Below, piece by piece: positions 44,606 to 56,396 of a stretch of DNA of 64,000 bases (positions are counted from its first letter, which is position 1; the number at the start of each line of letters is the position of its first letter). A program made the position numbers and the translations under genes. A model generated the notes under the pieces. The model was given only the letters and a program-made list of their open reading frames with translations, had not been told where the DNA came from and did no database searches. This DNA is from Rhodocollybia butyracea (Eukaryota; Basidiomycota; Agaricomycetes; Agaricales; Omphalotaceae), in contig JADNRY010000109.1 in NCBI GenBank assembly GCA_015501585.1, positions 62,001-126,000 on the forward strand, in the 5' to 3' direction.

Positions 44606-45582
44606 TTCTGTTCCAAGAGTGGTATTAACGAGTGTTAGTAACGTTCATAGTATACCCTTGCTTAATTAGATTCCCGCTCACCTTGGTATTATGTACACCT
44701 GGTACTTATTATCTGTATTGAAAATGACGAATTATCTCCCTCTCTGTACCCTGACGACCAAGCACCTTTATGACTATGAGTAAACCTGAGCTAGCGATGC
44801 AGACAAGTAGTGGTCAGCATGCAAATGTCTCGAGGAAATCATCTTGCGCTCACAGAAAGCTAGAAAGTACTGAGTCGTTTGCTTGAAGCACCAGTAATGG
44901 GTACTGGGTATTTACCGTTGACACCGGGAATTGGCTTTTTGAAGCAGTTTTGCTCGAGAAAAAGGGATATGGGGACAGGGAAGGAGGGGGGAAAAGAACA
45001 ACTGGGAGTATTTCACGCGCGCAGGCCTTTTAAGTCCATGAAAGAATGAGGTATGGGCGCAAGAGCCAACAAAGTTTGGGCGCAGATTCTGTAGCAATTC
45101 CCGATAGCTTCGGTAAATTGTTCACATCTCAAATTGCTTCGGCGTCAGCGCCTAGGAAGACGCCCATGCTATTTCGAGCTTCTGCTTAATCGATAATGGA
45201 TTGCTTGCGCGCTGAGGCTGAGTGTTTTCCATGCACCACCTGAGCGCCGAGCGCTGAAAGCTCCAGGGCGCTATGACTCTTATTTGTAACTTATCTTTAT
45301 CCAGCGTCCTCATATCGGCCTTTTACCCCAATCCAAAAACCAGAGCCTCAAGAAACCCGGCGTGCCGAACCAGTTGGAATCAGACTGTAAGGCAGCTATT
45401 CCTGGCAAACTTCAATTCCCTGTCATCACGGATATTCATTCTTATAGCAATCTCATAGTACTCTCACAAATTACTCTGCTAGTAAGAGCGAATCAACTGC
45501 TTGTATTTGGAATCCAAGTAAAAACATGCGAGTATCATTAAATGCCTATCGCTAAATGCCTATAATCATGACGGTCATTCCT
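44606..45582. other. Intergenic between convergent genes
   Basis: Holds the 3' UTRs of the zinc-cluster gene (plus) and the VTC gene (minus). Nothing else is recognised. Confidence 0.4.
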
Positions 45583-49006
<3,424 letters not shown>

Positions 49007-49199
49007 CGTTACTGGTAGAAAGTTAAACTCAAAACGAGATACTTTCGAATCTCCGGCCGCCGACGAGCGCGTGATTTTTTCGAAAAGAAGATAAGATTAG
49101 ATTATATTGATCAAATGTCAATGATAACAATGCATAATGATACATAAGATATGTACAAAAACTCGACGGTACACAGCAGCAGGCAGGTTGATTAAAGCA

Positions 49200-52100
49200 T
49201 TACTAGGAGAGAGCATCAGTACCTCATTAGAACAGACAAGAAGCGATAAACTCACTGAAAAGTACATTAGCGATTTTTGAGTATTATTAAGCGGCTTGAA
49301 GTTTCGACGGAAGGCTTCCAATGTCGTCTGGGCCTGGTTCGAGTCCACGTTCGTGGCACTGTCAGAGAAGTCCAGGTTGCCTTGCGGGTCGTAGTGGTTC
49401 TTCGCGCGCGAGCAAACAATATCCGCGTCTAACAACCTATATCAAGAGAATGTTCGATGTAGAGAACCAACAGGAACTCACAGTATACAGGAGCTGGGAT
49501 GGAGACGCTGCGTGTTGAGCGAGCGTATACATGGCACAATGCAAACGAGAGTGATTGAAGGGCATCTGGCGAGAACGAACTCTCATCATGGAGGATCTAC
49601 AAGATTGTCGTCAGGCACAATCGGTACAGTATGTCTCGAAATCTTACAGAGTAGTGGGCAGGACGACTGGTTCCTAGCAAGCCACCGTGGGACTGGAGGT
49701 AGAAATCGAACTCCGTCGGGTGGCCAATTTCTCTATCGACGACAGTTCCGGCGGGGCAGTTGCCAGATTTATCGCCTTGGTCCCTGCGAGTAGGGAAGAA
49801 CCTAAGGAAGAGGTTATCAGAATTATTGGAACAAGAAATAAGAGACGAAAAAGAATTTAACATACCGGACGTGGTGCCTCTTGCCGACTACGATGAAAGT
49901 AATCTTCGCATCGATGCTCAAGGACGCACAGGCCTCTATCGGGTTAGAGAACCATCAGAATAACGTAGGGTTGAACGGTATCAACGAATGCATACTTTTA
50001 AGAGCGACGAGCTCCTGATCAAGAACTTGCTTGAATTGCCCTTCCGAAACACCGTCTGCAACAAAATCATAAGCATTTTGTATCGAAAAAAACCCAGAAC
50101 AAACCTCTGTAGAAAATAATCCTCTTTGGAGAGGCGGCGAGACTCCCCTTTCCTTCAACCTCTCGACGGTACGTGACGTACTTCATCAGCATGTTCTGCC
50201 AAAGACCTGTAAATACTAACGTGTGTCAGGAATGGGATTCCATTTTCTTAAAGAATCAACTTTATTTATGATCATGTACTTTAAGTACTTTAAGAAGTAC
50301 TTACTACTTATACAACTACTTAAGAACTATAAAATTACTTAACAACAATCTTAAGAGATTTTTAAGGTTGCTTTTTCTTAAGAGTACTCTCAAAACTCAC
50401 CAGTGGACACGAGAATGCCAAGGTTTGAGGTAAGATCTTAAAGGAGTGTTTAAGAACAATTTCTTAAGATCAGAAGAATACCATGAGCTCACATCGAAGA
50501 CATCAATCTTAAGGAATTTTTAAGGAGGGTATTTCTTAAGAGCACTCTAAAAACTTGCCTCTTTTGCTATCAGAGTCACCTGGCGCCACTACAGCACACA
50601 AGTCAATCTTGAACCGAGAAGGCGCGTCAACGACCTGTGAGTTGAAAGTCTGTTACTCAAGTACTATACAGACAGAGCCACCACACTAAATGGTAGGCCC
50701 AGGAGTGACAGACAGTGGCTGGACAGTGGATTGGTTGAGCCGATGTGGCGCAACGAGGTCGGAAGATGAAAGAAAGAAAGAAAGAGGCGAAGTGGTGTTA
50801 GCGCCCATTTGCATCAACCATGTGATGGGTCAAAGCACCGGCTGTTGGCTCGGAAAATACAATAAGAGGCTAAGAGTCGGCATGGGCTTTGTCCAATCTC
50901 CTTTTGTCTTTTCAAACAATAGACAGAAGTACTCTTAAATGCTTGACCACCTGCAGGCCACATCTTCTTGCCTTCTCTTTTGGCCCCCTTCCTGCCTATG
51001 TATTGTAGTTGATGCAAAGTAATTTCAAAGTGTTGTTATTAGGAACGGCTGGGGCCCGCGTTATGGTAGCGCTTGGAAATGACAATAAGTATCGGGCCAG
51101 TCACACCTTCTGTCTATTGTTTGAGCACTCCTTTGTCTTTTCAAACAATAGACAAAAGCACTACTTATTAATGCTCAACCACTCGTTGAATTGCTGCCGT
51201 TTTACCCCATCCCCCTCCCCCCCTGCTTGTGAAGGTAATTCTTAGATTCCAGACGCCAGGCTCGCATGTGGTTGGCAGCCAATGCCATGATATGTTGGGG
51301 GACAGGAAGAGGCAGTGAGCTTCTTTTTGCTTGAAAAGTGCGCTTCTTATTGTTCTTAAGAAGCAAGTAAGATTTTTTCCTTAATGAATATTTGCACACA
51401 AGAGAACGATTTGCTAACAGCATTGTTCTTAAGGAAAATTTCTTAAGAATTAAAGAAATAAGTAAAGAATGTTAAGAAATAAAGTATCTTAAGAAACATT
51501 TGGTACTATATTGTAAGTGCGAGGAAATACCACGGGAGACATTAAACACTTAAAGAATACTTATAGGTTTTCTTAAAGTATATGATCATAAATAATGTTT
51601 ATTCTTTAAGAACAATTGAATCCCACTGTACCGTGTGTTTGAACAATCAACAACATACCTTGGCCATCGTTTCAAGATCTTCGATGATCTCTTGTCGGGA
51701 CGTTTGGACAGCGCAATCGGCAACGTATTTGGCGTTATCGGAATCAACGCTAGCAACAAGAGCGGTGAAGGAAGGACGGCCGTCGGATCCAGGAGCAGGA
51801 TGGATGACATCAGCACCTACAAAATGCAAGTTAGCTTCAATCATAACGACCAAAAATGTACGTACCCATAACTATGGTCGGGTTCTGAGGATCGCTCAAT
51901 GTCCTGACTGAGTTGGCGTCAGGAACAGTGTTAATTCCTCCTAATTTTACATTGATCCTGGAAGACTCGTCAAAGAGAAACCAAACCAAAGGACACAAAA
52001 CACAAACTTCAGGCAAACATTTGCAAAGTACTGAGGTTTTGCGTGAACGCACTTCGACGATTTGAGACACTGAGTAGCTACACCCATGACGATATCACCA

Positions 52101-54552
52101 AAGCTAGAGGGAGGAAAAATATAAGTAGTGAGGACACAACTGCATAGCCTAAAAAACACCTACTGTTTCGAGGCGGTATATGTTTCATTGCCTCCTTCGG
52201 GCAAGATAATGACGAGGAGACTGGGGCCTTTCCCGTACTTGTCGACGACAAGCTTTCCAGCAGCCTTAAGCTGCGCAGAGATATTGCCCTGGCCGTTCTC
52301 CCCTAAAACCACGATTGGAGTCGGCTGCATCTTGATACCTTGATAGATGGTCTAGGTTAGACAACTGTTGAGACGTCGAACAGGTTGAAGGCATCCGTAC
52401 CAACTTCCCGTGCGCTTTCGCACAAGGCTTGCATCATTTGAGTGGCAGCTTGCTGGCTGAACCGTCTAGTCGTTTCCTGTAACGCAAGCACATCAAACAA
52501 CGACGACAAACATAGACGAGACACATACATAGGAAACGAGAACCCAACGAGGGATCTCAACAGGCTTGAAGAAACACTTTTCACGCCTACAGAGCAATTT
52601 AGCAAGGGAATAGACGAGGGCATGGTGACTTACATATTCCACTGGCCATTAGCCGGTACCTACAAACGAAAATAAGCAAACATTAAATAGCCGCGGAGTG
52701 AGAAACACGTACGATCGTCAACTGTCTGCTGCCTTTACCATATTTCAACGTCGGAGGGTTGAGAACACGAGCATTGATCCTCATCGGGAAGCATCAGAAA
52801 CGGAAATTCCAAAGTTTCTAACATATTCAGATTGGCCATAAGCAAGGACCTACAGCAGAAAAGGAAGCAGCTTCAGAATCAGAGAAAAAGGGCGACAATG
52901 TTAACGTACGTTCAGTCCAGCCGTGATAGAGGCCAACCGGTCTGCCGGTTGCTTGGTGGCGAAATCCAAAACCGACTTTGTCTTTTCAGGTGGAACCTGC
53001 TTGCGCATGATCTGGCCAGGGGGAACAGTGCAAAGCTCGAACGGAATTAGTGCACCAGTCCCGATCTGATGGCTATAAGTTCAAAGCAAGAGAACCAGAA
53101 ATGCCGAACTTTACCTCAACACAGAGGACTTCAGGGTATTTCAATGGAGATCTAATGACGTTCTTGAAGTAATCCGCGACAGTCATCGAGCCTCCCTCTT
53201 TCAGCTTGAATGAGAGAGCACCAGCCCCTGCTGGACTGAGCTTCTTGATGATACGAGTGATCTGGCGCCCGTCTGGCGTAGGAGTAAGAACTCGTATACC
53301 GGTGATGAACCTCTGCAACCGAAGGCGCTCTCGGTCGGGTAGGCCGCGTGCGGGGGCCAAATCATTGGGGTTGGAACGACCAAAGAAATCGAGAGCCAGT
53401 CCGATGAGCGGCCCCGGCTTGTACATCGTAGCAGTGGATATATCGACGTTGATCAGCATGCGACCGAACGCTGGTCGGATAGACTGGAAGTAACCACGCC
53501 ACAACTCAAGACCTAACGGAAGAAAAAGAAACAAAAAGTCGTCAAAAAATACCCAATGAGCGTGGAACAAGGTGCTTACCAGACCCGATGTCTTTCTTTT
53601 CCTGGTCCGTGTAGAACGAACGCACATTGAATGGGTATCTCATTGAGGGCGCCATACGAATGACAACGTTGAGGGCCTACCAGTCGTTGAAAAACAACTT
53701 AGCAAAGTCGTTCAAACGCGAATGATGCATGTACTCACCGTGATAGCGGTCAAAACCATGTTATCCTGCGACTGCTGACCTTGAATGAAGCGCTGCAAAA
53801 CCCTTTGAAGGAACACTTAGTACGACTAGCTTCGACACACACACACACAAAAATGGCTTACTCAGGATTGATGTTGGCGACCAGTTTGAACTTGACCTTG
53901 TAGATCTTCGGGCCTTTACCGCCCTGGCTCCTGTTCCGGGCAGCGTCTTCTTCGGTCTCCAGCGTCACGTCGAACTAGTAATAGAGAGAAAATCAATCGT
54001 TGCCACGGGAAAACCGGTATGGAGAAATTACCTCTCTGGTGTCCTCGGGGCCCAGGGGCAACCTACGCGCGGCGAAGAAGTTCTTACGCCCGTCGTACGA
54101 TCCCGGCGGCGTGAAAACATCGGGGGCGCATCGTTCCTGGCATGCCTTGATGATGTCCATGTTGAGACGCGCAGGAAGAGCCTTGTCGGCCGGATGGATG
54201 ACTATGACCGCGATTAGTATGTAAGTGCAACCTCACGACTAAAGAACCAACCAACTACAAGACCAAAAAAAAAAGTCAGCCATCGCGATTTCCGATATTA
54301 ATGAAAAAAGCAAAGAAAAGATATCTGATAGTGCATCGAAAACAAAAACAAGAAACGTACTGTCGTAGTGGTATATGATATCGCGAGGAATTGTCGTCTG
54401 GAAGGCATTGACGAAGACGGGCAGCTCCTTTCCAGAGGTTCCGAAAGCTGTTCTTTTCACGCCGAGCGTCGTTACATGAGAGGCGGTAGCCGGGAGATCA
54501 GTACTAGCAGCAGGCGCCCGCCGCGAGCAGCGTTACGAGGTGGAGGAGGCAT
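49200..54552 (-). CDS. Argonaute (RNA-silencing slicer, QDE-2 class)
   Basis: Multi-exon Argonaute. N domain: [21 protein letters not shown]1: [56 protein letters not shown]; then [13 protein letters not shown] and ADRLASIT into L2/[24 protein letters not shown] carries the first catalytic Asp, [11 protein letters not shown] the second, and [15 protein letters not shown] precedes [17 protein letters not shown]. The DDH slicer set appears intact, so it should cleave small-RNA-guided targets. The intron between the first two catalytic Asp exons is 1,463 nt (50196-51658) and contains a mobile-element-like insertion. All other introns are about 50-70 nt. The last intron (49203-49255) sits directly before the TAA. 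The start is uncertain: the ATG at 54552 ([12 protein letters not shown]) needs one extra base in the GGG run at 54517-54519 to stay in frame with [13 protein letters not shown]. Confidence 0.92.
50227..51628. mobile_element. Non-autonomous TIR DNA transposon (hAT-like ends?) inside an Argonaute intron
   Basis: The ends are imperfect terminal inverted repeats of about 50 bp. The left end (50227-50278) reads CAGGAATGGGATTCCATTTT then CTTAAAGAAT...TTTATGATCATGTA. The complement of the right end (51579-51628) reads CAGTGGGATTCAATTGTT then CTTAAAGAAT...TTTATGATCATATA. Both start with CAG, as many hAT elements do. ACGTGTGT precedes the left end and TACCGTGTGT follows the right end, an imperfect target duplication. 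There is no transposase ORF. The interior is full of CTTAAG-type short palindromes and hairpins. Removing the element plus one duplication leaves a 53-nt intron, the normal size here. Confidence 0.75.
51111..51154. repeat. Perfect 14-bp hairpin inside the intronic element
   Basis: TGTCTATTGTTTGA (51111-51124) and its exact complement TCAAACAATAGACA (51141-51154) are separated by 16 nt. A related right arm, TCAAACAATAGACA followed by GAAG, occurs at about 50910-50928 without its own left arm nearby. Confidence 0.7.
53834..53848. repeat. (CA)n microsatellite in an Argonaute intron
   Basis: About seven CA units lie in a short intron between two N-terminal-half exons. Confidence 0.6.
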
Positions 54553-55354
54553 CGCAGAGAAAAAGACGACGGTGGAAGGAGGAAGAAGAAGAAAGAAGAA
54601 CGATGGAAAAAATCAGAGCAGATATCTTTTATATGGACCTCATGAGGAACCGTAAAGACTCAGAGATGGATCACACGATCCACGTGTTGAGTCCTGTTGA
54701 GTCCTTCTTTAGCGCTTATTGCTATTTTCAGGATGGACAAGGGATTTAACGCGTCCATTTATCTATTTACGCGTCGTTTTCTGTCGAAAGAAAAGCTATT
54801 TGTACGAGATATCAGCCGAGGATAAAAAAACTTTTTTCCTTCGCTGTCAAGCCTTAGCTTCAACCCACGCACCCAAAAACGTATCGTGCTGCGCTTCGAA
54901 TTACCACAAGGCCAAAGCGATCAGACAGCGAGGCAAAATTTTAATGAACTCCAGCTGTTCGCAGTCATTCTGTGACTCTGAAACTGTAAGCCGATATGAT
55001 TGTGGAAAACTCTAGTCGGTGGAACTTGTCCGAGAGAGGATTTCATGTTCGAAGTATGTACATGGTATGAATTCTACCGGTTTATCATGATGAGGACCCT
55101 GAGCATCAAAAATAGCTACGTTGGTGTACAGTTCTGTCGCTCCTACCTACTATGTAGAAGAAAAAAGATTGTTCGTGGGATCAGTTCTGACTCGACGCCT
55201 AGCGGGAAAGAACCAAACGTTTCCATGGTGAGAATCCTCGGCTTGTGGGTTCAGCAGCAGTGTATATTTGATTCTCTATCGATCCGAGTATGATAAGGCA
55301 CCTAAGAAAACAATAGGTATGGAACCACAGGAACGGGACATTGCTCACACAAAC
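54553..55354. other. Intergenic: Argonaute promoter and 3' flank of the adenylyltransferase gene
   Basis: No domain-bearing frame is seen on either strand. The Argonaute 5' leader and promoter are expected within the first 200-300 bp. Confidence 0.4.
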
Positions 55355-56396
55355 TCATCGATACAGCCCATGCTCGATGATATACTTCCTCACACGTTCT
55401 GTGACCATCCCTCTCCATCGATGCTCTATACCACTTTTGACCTCAGATCCAGCGCCAGTAGGATCATCTGCAACTTCAGATTCCTTCCTGACTCCTTCCC
55501 TAACTTCACTCGAGCTCACATTCCACACATCCTCCCCAATATCAACCATCGTTACACAGGAGGGTGGAAGCGCAGAAGAAGCTAAGAAGCTCGATATGGT
55601 TCGAGAAAGGGAGATGGGATCAGAGGAAGACGCTGACGGAGTGTTTGGCGGAGGCATTGCAGAATGAGGGTAGGAAGACGGACTGCGTCGGGCACAGATG
55701 ACGCGGGAATTATCACCGTGGTTGTCGCCTTTGGATGAGCTTGGATAAAAAGAAACCTCGTAATGCACGATACATCTTTTCCTCCGAAGAACCATAGTAC
55801 TTGGGAGCAAACAGTCTCTCAAGGGTATCATAACCCAGGAGAAACGTCAGTTGAGTTTCGGGAGGCGATGGTTGATTCTGTAGTTTTTCCCTGAGGAAAG
55901 CCTGTAGTAATCTGGATTTACCGACGAAAGTTGGTTCGTCAATGATGGCCACTGCAACACTTGGACAACGAACAGAACAGACATTGCCGGCACTCGTGGA
56001 GCAATGGGATTCCTGTAGGTCCTTTGCCAGCTCAATCATCATCTCAACCCGCTGGACATACGTCGCATCGCCTGATTTGAGCTGCTTGTCGGCGTTACGG
56101 ACAGATAACAAAAGTAGTTTCGCGTCATATTCCGAGCCTTCAGCGCCAGCTTCGGAGCGGTCTTCAGAGCTACCAAGCGCAGGAGTATCTGCTAATGCAG
56201 AATGGGCTAGAGTTGGTGGGTTGAAGGACGAGTCTAGAACAGATATCCGAATCGTTCGAAGAACACTCGATGGAATTCCGTTCGAAAGAGGCCAGGAGGG
56301 ATGGGAAGCCCAAAGAACTTCGACCGGAGGAGATACCGATCCTGTTTGGAGACGCTGGAGAGCAGATCGAATAGAAGATGACAAGGATGAAGCCAT
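55355..56396 (-). CDS. Nicotinamide mononucleotide adenylyltransferase (NMNAT, Pof1-like)
   Basis: Cytidylyltransferase-fold protein of about 346 residues that would make NAD+ from NMN and ATP. It has the nucleotide-binding signature VLDSSFNPPTLAHSALA (FNPPTxAH), LLLSVRNADKQLK, AIIDEPTFVGKSRLL, TFLLGYDTLERLFAPKYY, SRVICARRSPSSYP and a C-terminal SSSEVREGVR matching the ISSTxxR motif, ending KYIIEHGLYR. The first part has no intron. The frame changes after RALRGFF: deleting one base of an A5 run on the plus strand (55747-55751) restores YPSSSKGD into SRVICARR. A 28-nt GT-AG interval would also restore frame but is far too short for this genome. The 5' part of this gene has a diverged copy at 62150-62320. 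Confidence 0.85.

What the first reader, a model, noticed from the sequence alone, without database searches (positions are those of the whole stretch)
50196..51658. A 1.4-kb inverted-repeat element sits in a PIWI-domain intron of the Argonaute gene
About 50-bp terminal inverted repeats (50227-50278 and 51579-51628), both starting CAG, bound a 1,402-bp insert with no transposase. It lies between the exons carrying the first and second catalytic Asp of the slicer. Removing the element and one near-duplicate ACGTGTGT leaves a 53-nt intron, exactly the local norm. A mobile element has thus lodged in a gene whose job is to silence such elements. Its palindromic interior could form dsRNA in the pre-mRNA and so feed the same pathway; that last step is inference.
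Basis: partly seen in the sequence, partly recalled or inferred. Interest (0 to 1): 0.78.

Follow-up and report, generated by a model that had tools for sequence, protein, structure and literature searches.

The report
Jumping DNA inside an Argonaute intron
A 1.4-kb piece of mobile DNA without genes of its own has recently landed in an intron of a gene-silencing (Argonaute) gene in one of the two gene copies of a litter mushroom; the other copy still shows the untouched site, and the public annotation cuts the gene in two there.

Summary
The finding holds. The insert is a non-autonomous DNA transposon of 1,405 bp (50227-51631) between two copies of a 7-bp target-site duplication, CGTGTGT. The same genome holds at least 21 end-to-end matches, itself included, 61 left ends and 64 right ends. 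Of 41 copies with both ends, 30 have perfect 7-bp duplications. Contig C1212, collinear over 9.5 kb, carries the same Argonaute gene with the exact empty site, a 51-nt intron. Another copy 22.7 kb away is identical over 1,405 bases, so the insertion is recent. The organism is Rhodocollybia butyracea; its public annotation splits this Argonaute into proteins of 568 and 220 aa at the element. The mobiliser is probably a KDZ transposase: two loci with the same left end have a KDZ domain 2.43 kb inside, but no right end was found there and I could not read them. The RNA folds more stably than shuffles (z = -7); whether it feeds RNAi is untested. Well documented, biologically ordinary.

The parts
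50227..51631 (+). non-autonomous TIR transposon, 1,405 bp
   Evidence: ends fixed by comparison of copies and by the empty allele
50220..50226 (.). 7-bp target-site duplication CGTGTGT, left copy
   Evidence: present once in the empty allele
51632..51638 (.). 7-bp target-site duplication CGTGTGT, right copy
50227..50285 (+). left terminal inverted repeat, starts CAGGAATGGGATTC
51572..51631 (-). right terminal inverted repeat, read inward GTACAGTGGGATTC
50319..50540 (.). subterminal cluster of CTTAAG palindromes (6 of 10); possible transposase-binding repeats (inference)
   Evidence: 10 in the element, shuffle mean 0.75, maximum 5 in 500 shuffles
51355..51493 (.). second subterminal cluster of CTTAAG palindromes (4 of 10)
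50912..51124 (.). interior perfect 18-nt inverted repeat (50912-50929 / 51107-51124)
   Evidence: pair I4
50196..51658 (-). host intron 15, 1,463 nt with the element, 51 nt without
51659..51816 (-). Argonaute exon 15 with the first catalytic Asp (GADVIHP)
50105..50195 (-). Argonaute exon 16; ends with the first base of the second catalytic Asp codon
49256..54517 (-). Argonaute gene as modelled (exons 1-21; the start codon lies slightly upstream, near 54552, behind a one-base difference from C1212)

Best explanation
A non-autonomous DNA (cut-and-paste) transposon with imperfect terminal inverted repeats of about 59 bp inserted recently, with a 7-bp staggered cut, into a 51-nt intron of an Argonaute gene in one of the two haplotypes of Rhodocollybia butyracea. 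Shown: family, ends, duplication, empty site on a collinear contig, intact splice sites. Inferred: it was mobilised in trans by a transposase encoded elsewhere, most likely (about 0.6) of the KDZ (Kyakuja-Dileera-Zisupton) superfamily; and it is a near-neutral passenger, mostly spliced out with the intron, perhaps lowering full-length Argonaute mRNA from that haplotype, buffered by the empty allele and by other Argonaute loci. The confidence below is for the shown part.
For: 21 matches, the element itself included, span it end to end in one alignment, 75-100% identical (40 of 88 candidates scored, so a lower bound). Of 41 pairs of ends, 30 have perfect 7-bp duplications and 3 have one mismatch. 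The exact pre-insertion intron is in C1212, collinear over the 9.5 kb fetched at 97.7-99.5%. Matches across the predicted empty junction at 94% or better were found for 12 of 24 distinct sites. The copy at C102:134886 has 0 differences in 1,405 bases. For KDZ: left ends at C1007:18699 and C102:3129 match this element at 96% over 103 of 104 nt, and both have a KDZ domain (PF18758) on the opposite strand from 2.43 kb inside. Fungal Kyakuja elements (KDZ) make 7-bp duplications (PMC12730594, section 3.2.1 read). 0 of 46 hAT-dimerisation matches lie within 20 kb of the 61 left ends.
Against: The KDZ link rests on positions only. If ends and KDZ loci were spread evenly, 0.57 such pairs within 10 kb inside would be expected (61 ends, 89 loci merged by eye from the 144 matches), more if transposons cluster, and the two loci may be alleles of one. 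No right end was found near either (28-nt pattern with up to 3 mismatches; shorter pattern, whose list of 2-mismatch places was cut). Described Kyakuja families have 5'-CA..TG-3' termini and no TIRs, unlike this element. 8 of 41 copies have no 7-bp match at their ends, and 7 of 24 sites gave no match across the empty junction. There are no RNA data. Two AATAAA in the gene-sense strand of the element could end transcripts early.
Confidence: 0.93

Rival explanations
1. Same kind of element, but mobilised by another transposase, for example a hAT element with 7-bp duplications (hAT7) or an undescribed superfamily, not KDZ.
For: hAT7 elements with 7-bp duplications exist in rust fungi (PMC12730594, passage). 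The TIRs here do not match the TIR-less Kyakuja described there. The KDZ link is positional only, with no right end found.
Against: 0 of 46 hAT-domain matches lie within 20 kb of a left end, against two KDZ loci with the same spacing and orientation inside the same left end. Other transposase families were not searched genome-wide.
Confidence: 0.35
2. The element forms a hairpin in the pre-mRNA that Dicer cuts, so the Argonaute gene's own transcription yields small RNAs against the whole family.
For: MFE -406.6 kcal/mol against -344.2 +/- 8.9 for 60 shuffles, z = -7.0; 47 pairs between the two ends in the predicted fold (whole intron).
Against: Any element with TIRs folds this way. Introns are normally removed and degraded quickly (general knowledge). 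No small-RNA data. Copies 96.6-100% alike in two subfamilies suggest recent activity, not silencing.
Confidence: 0.06
3. The insertion stops splicing or causes early polyadenylation, so this haplotype makes a truncated 568-aa protein lacking the second catalytic Asp and the His, as the public gene models read literally.
For: The public models end at ...MAKVCC (P0055, read-through of the 5' splice site) and restart at MLMKYV (P0121). An AATAAA lies 29 nt into the element on the gene strand.
Against: The stop after MAKVCC is in the host intron, not in the element; gene predictors often refuse introns far above the local length (general knowledge). P0055 also skips coding sequence around the one-base difference in exon 8, so it is probably not transcript-based. 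Splice sites are intact.
Confidence: 0.15
4. Assembly artefact: the repeat was misplaced into the Argonaute contig.
For: An identical copy lies 22.7 kb away on the same contig; the two alleles differ by single-base indels in exons that look like assembly errors.
Against: A perfect 7-bp duplication of this site and a different one (CTGCAGC) at the twin are not expected of a misjoin.
Confidence: 0.02

Closest known systems
Kyakuja lineage of KDZ DNA transposons in Agaricomycotina (PMC12730594, section 3.2.1 read)
   Same: 7-bp target-site duplications; fungal host group; left end starts CA; KDZ domains lie inside two copies of the same left end
   Different: The two families described there end 5'-CA..TG-3' and have no TIRs; this one ends CAG...TAC with TIRs of about 59 bp and encodes nothing
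MITEs and other non-autonomous TIR elements
   Same: no coding capacity, TIRs, fixed-length duplication, homogeneous subfamilies; a 91-bp member exists (L037)
   Different: 37 of the 41 members measured are 1.1-2.6 kb, longer than typical MITEs (typical size recalled)
hAT7 elements of rust fungi (PMC12730594, passage)
   Same: 7-bp duplications
   Different: no hAT-domain match within 20 kb of any of 61 left ends; reported there from Pucciniales

Membership tests
non-autonomous DNA transposon with TIRs | terminal inverted repeats at both ends | tested here: met
non-autonomous DNA transposon with TIRs | dispersed copies with the same ends | tested here: met
   (0 matches to the reversed control patterns in 22 and 33)
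non-autonomous DNA transposon with TIRs | target-site duplication of fixed length | tested here: met
   30 of 41 perfect 7 bp, 3 of 41 with one mismatch, 8 of 41 with three or more
non-autonomous DNA transposon with TIRs | empty site without the element | tested here: met
   this site; 12 of 24 distinct sites in all
non-autonomous DNA transposon with TIRs | no transposase inside | tested here: met
   longest stop-to-stop frame wholly inside is 89 aa; frames not searched against families
KDZ superfamily (Kyakuja) | 7-bp duplication | tested here: met
   value for Kyakuja from PMC12730594
KDZ superfamily (Kyakuja) | 5'-CA..TG-3' termini, no TIRs, as described | tested here: not met
   CAG...TAC with TIRs. 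I therefore do not file it as Kyakuja.
KDZ superfamily | a KDZ transposase between copies of these same two ends | tested here: inconclusive
   KDZ 2.43 kb inside the left end at two loci; no right end found there (list cut); letters not obtained
hAT7 | hAT transposase linked to these ends | tested here: not met
   0 of 46 hAT matches within 20 kb of 61 left ends
Argonaute (host gene) | ArgoN, PAZ, Mid, Piwi domains and slicer residues | tested here: met
   domains; alignment to solved Argonaute-2 chains (identity of the catalytic residues recalled)

The most novel reading that the evidence does not exclude
The intronic element acts as a self-silencing trap: transcription of the Argonaute gene makes a long hairpin that is cut into small RNAs against the whole transposon family, so the more Argonaute is transcribed, the more the family is silenced. 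It looks heterozygous, so the two haplotypes of one strain could be compared.
Probability: 0.04. Interest if true: 0.75.

Novelty: new member of a known kind. Interest (0 to 1): 0.3.

Why it matters
It is a clean record of a recent transposition (filled and empty sites, perfect duplication, identical sister copy) in a gene of the silencing pathway, and a natural test of whether a TIR element in an Argonaute intron harms or feeds RNAi. Practically, the public annotation of this Argonaute is split into two gene models, which would mislead counts of slicer-competent Argonautes. If the KDZ link is confirmed, the family would document non-autonomous, TIR-bearing KDZ derivatives with 7-bp duplications.

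Tried and rejected
A 7.8-kb copy (L041) looked autonomous by length but is a Copia-type retrotransposon nested in a family member. A 4.3-kb copy (L038) holds frames without a transposase match, one with helix-turn-helix matches. Three loci with a right end but no left end in 10 kb (L035, L047, L048) gave no transposase domain in the 10 frames tested. A 3.7-kb copy (L053) has no frame above 131 aa. Other members were not scanned for domains. No Rfam family reaches its cut-off in 49000-55000. The idea that the family prefers introns: GTRNGT lies within 60 nt of 19 of 41 sites against 32% of random window positions; too weak to claim. My first model of exon 13 was too short and was corrected from homologs. 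Literature: I saw search listings only (titles, abstract starts), apart from the two papers named; nothing in them looked like this case to me: 20 of 29 papers listed; 20 of 24; 1 of 1; 10 of 10; 2 of 2; 10 of 80; 8 of 4,740. The library holds open-licence papers only, so this is no proof that it is unpublished.

Full report
What is there. The minus strand from about 54552 to 49256 encodes an Argonaute with ArgoN, ArgoL1, PAZ, ArgoL2, Mid and Piwi domains, alignable over nearly its whole length with solved Argonaute-2 chains. My model has 21 exons and 20 introns. Nineteen introns are 47-159 nt (median 57) and one, intron 15, is 1,463 nt (50196-51658). The window differs from the other allele by one base near the start and one base in exon 8, each of which shifts the frame; the other allele in turn lacks several single bases in exons, so I read these as probable assembly errors, not proof of a broken gene.

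The insert. Against the genome (G000, 95.6 Mb, 1,381 contigs) the element gave 21 single-alignment matches over its full length, itself included, 75-100% identical; only 40 of 88 candidates were scored, so this is a lower bound. In the copies compared, shared sequence runs from CAGGAATGGG to CCCACTGTAC, which sets the element at 50227-51631, 1,405 bp. Pattern scans found 61 left ends and 64 right ends, with 0 matches to the reversed control patterns. I took 42 loci that seemed to have both ends; one (L006) gave no pair, 30 of the other 41 had identical 7-bp flanks, 3 had one mismatch and 8 had three or more (where several end pairs were possible, the script took the one with fewest mismatches). 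Two of the 30 (L024, L025) are the same insertion on two contigs. Fetched loci with only one recognisable end (L030, L035, L042, L047, L048, L049, L051) were left out of this count.

The empty site. The Argonaute gene has one other close match in the genome, C1212, 97% identical. The fetched 9.5 kb of C1212 is collinear with window 45241-56175 at 99.5% and 97.7%, broken only at the element. There the intron reads as the window intron minus the element and one CGTGTGT, 51 nt, identical base for base. That C1212 is the allele and not a duplicate is inferred. I also built predicted empty sites for 23 other copies. In one search, 9 of 18 probes found a match of at least 115 nt across the junction at 97% or better (L003, L007, L017, L019, L021, L022, L023, L027, L028). 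In one search (13 probes, 7 of them repeats), this site (C1212 at 100%), L033 (99%) and L046 (94% over 97 nt) did. In all, 12 of 24 distinct sites have an empty counterpart at 94% or better. Five more have only weaker or multi-copy matches (L026, L029, L034, L045 at 76-87%; L039 at 96-98% over about 89 nt in many copies), and seven have none (L002, L005, L015, L016, L024, L032, L043). One search scored 40 of 199 candidates and 40 of 61, so absence is not proof. The identical twin (L002) is among those without. For L016 and L024 two contigs with the same flanks carry the element. Some empty matches (L003, L023, L033) lie in sequences with several copies, so they may be empty relatives rather than strict alleles.

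Age. The copy at C102:134886 has 0 differences in 1,405 bases and its own duplication, CTGCAGC. The eight closest copies (L001-L008, of which L006 and L008 have the same flanks) are 96.6-100% alike over ungapped columns, and six members of a second subfamily of about 1.5 kb are 98.9-99.7% alike. With the empty counterpart, this places the insertion late.

Who moves it. No copy that I read showed a transposase that I could tie to these ends; I scanned frames of five loci only (L035, L038, L041, L047, L048). Two left ends without a partner, at C1007:18699 and C102:3129, are 96% identical to this element over 103 of 104 nt. Both have a KDZ domain (PF18758) on the opposite strand, with the nearest edge 2,433 and 2,435 bp inside. 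About 0.57 chance pairs within 10 kb inside would be expected for 61 ends and 89 KDZ loci (merged by eye from 144 matches) if both were spread evenly, so the weight lies on the equal spacing, and the two may be alleles. One further KDZ locus lies 7.3 kb outside a left end (C463), as chance would give. Against it: no right end turned up near either locus with a 28-nt pattern and up to 3 mismatches, nor among the places listed for a 17-nt pattern (113 places, 100 listed, 39 for the reversed control). No hAT-domain match (46) lies within 20 kb of a left end. Kyakuja elements of the KDZ superfamily make 7-bp duplications in Agaricomycotina but are described with CA..TG termini and no TIRs (PMC12730594, section 3.2.1 read in full, otherwise passages). 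I therefore call KDZ probable (about 0.6) and do not file the element as Kyakuja. Both ends carry clusters of the palindrome CTTAAG, 10 in the element against 0.75 in shuffles; that they bind the transposase is inference.

Effect on the gene. The 5' splice site (AAG|GTATGT) and the 3' splice site (TTGGCAG|AAC, in the frame of the Lentinula homolog P0001) are untouched. The insertion falls between the 5' splice site and a yUnAy-like TTTAC 14 nt before the 3' splice site (read by eye; consensus recalled). The element end plus the duplication also makes CTGAC upstream, which could favour a wrong AG; that is speculation. Homology search identified the source as Rhodocollybia butyracea: protein P0055 (BDP27DRAFT_1332495) lies on a contig of 197,511 bases, the length of C102. 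P0055 has 568 aa and ends ...LETMAKVCC, reading through the 5' splice site of intron 15. P0121, 220 aa, on a contig of the same length, begins MLMKYV in exon 16. One gene is thus annotated as two, split at the element. The strain is probably AH 40177 (PMC8480192, passages seen); that link is inferred from the species name. Other Piwi-domain matches (three places on C506, two on C143, and C1130, C428, C223, C924, C1271; some are likely allele pairs) mean that this is not the only Argonaute.

RNA. The gene-sense transcript of the element folds to -406.6 kcal/mol against -344.2 +/- 8.9 for 60 dinucleotide shuffles (z = -7.0), with 47 pairs between the two ends. The other strand folds as well (-419.2, same call). 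That is what TIRs must give. It permits, but does not show, processing by Dicer.

Verdict. It is a recent, probably heterozygous insertion of a non-autonomous DNA transposon. The location is striking, but nothing shows that it is more than chance among dozens of copies.

Noticed in passing
window 50196-51658 with proteins P0055 and P0121: Public annotation of Rhodocollybia butyracea splits this one Argonaute into a 568-aa and a 220-aa protein at the element.
   Followed up: yes
L041 1981-9774 (C818:15980-23773): A Copia-type retrotransposon (integrase core and RVT_2 domains) is nested inside a member of the same transposon family, with the outer 7-bp duplication GGTGCCT intact.
   Followed up: partly
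L037 200-290 (C627): A 91-bp miniature member with both ends and a perfect duplication CATCTTC.
   Followed up: no
L038 2253-6573 (C648): A 4.3-kb member with a perfect duplication CAATATA holds several frames, one with helix-turn-helix matches (Tc1-like by my recollection), perhaps a nested element.
   Followed up: partly
window AGO exon 8 and start region, against C1212: One-base differences between the two alleles shift the frame at two places in the window copy and at several in C1212; probably assembly errors.
   Followed up: partly
C1007:18699 and C102:3129: Family left ends with a KDZ domain 2.43 kb inside; possible longer, coding members; letters could not be fetched.
   Followed up: partly
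insertion sites of 41 copies: GTRNGT (5' splice-like) within 60 nt of 19 of 41 sites against 32% of random window positions; a weak hint of gene or intron proximity.
   Followed up: partly
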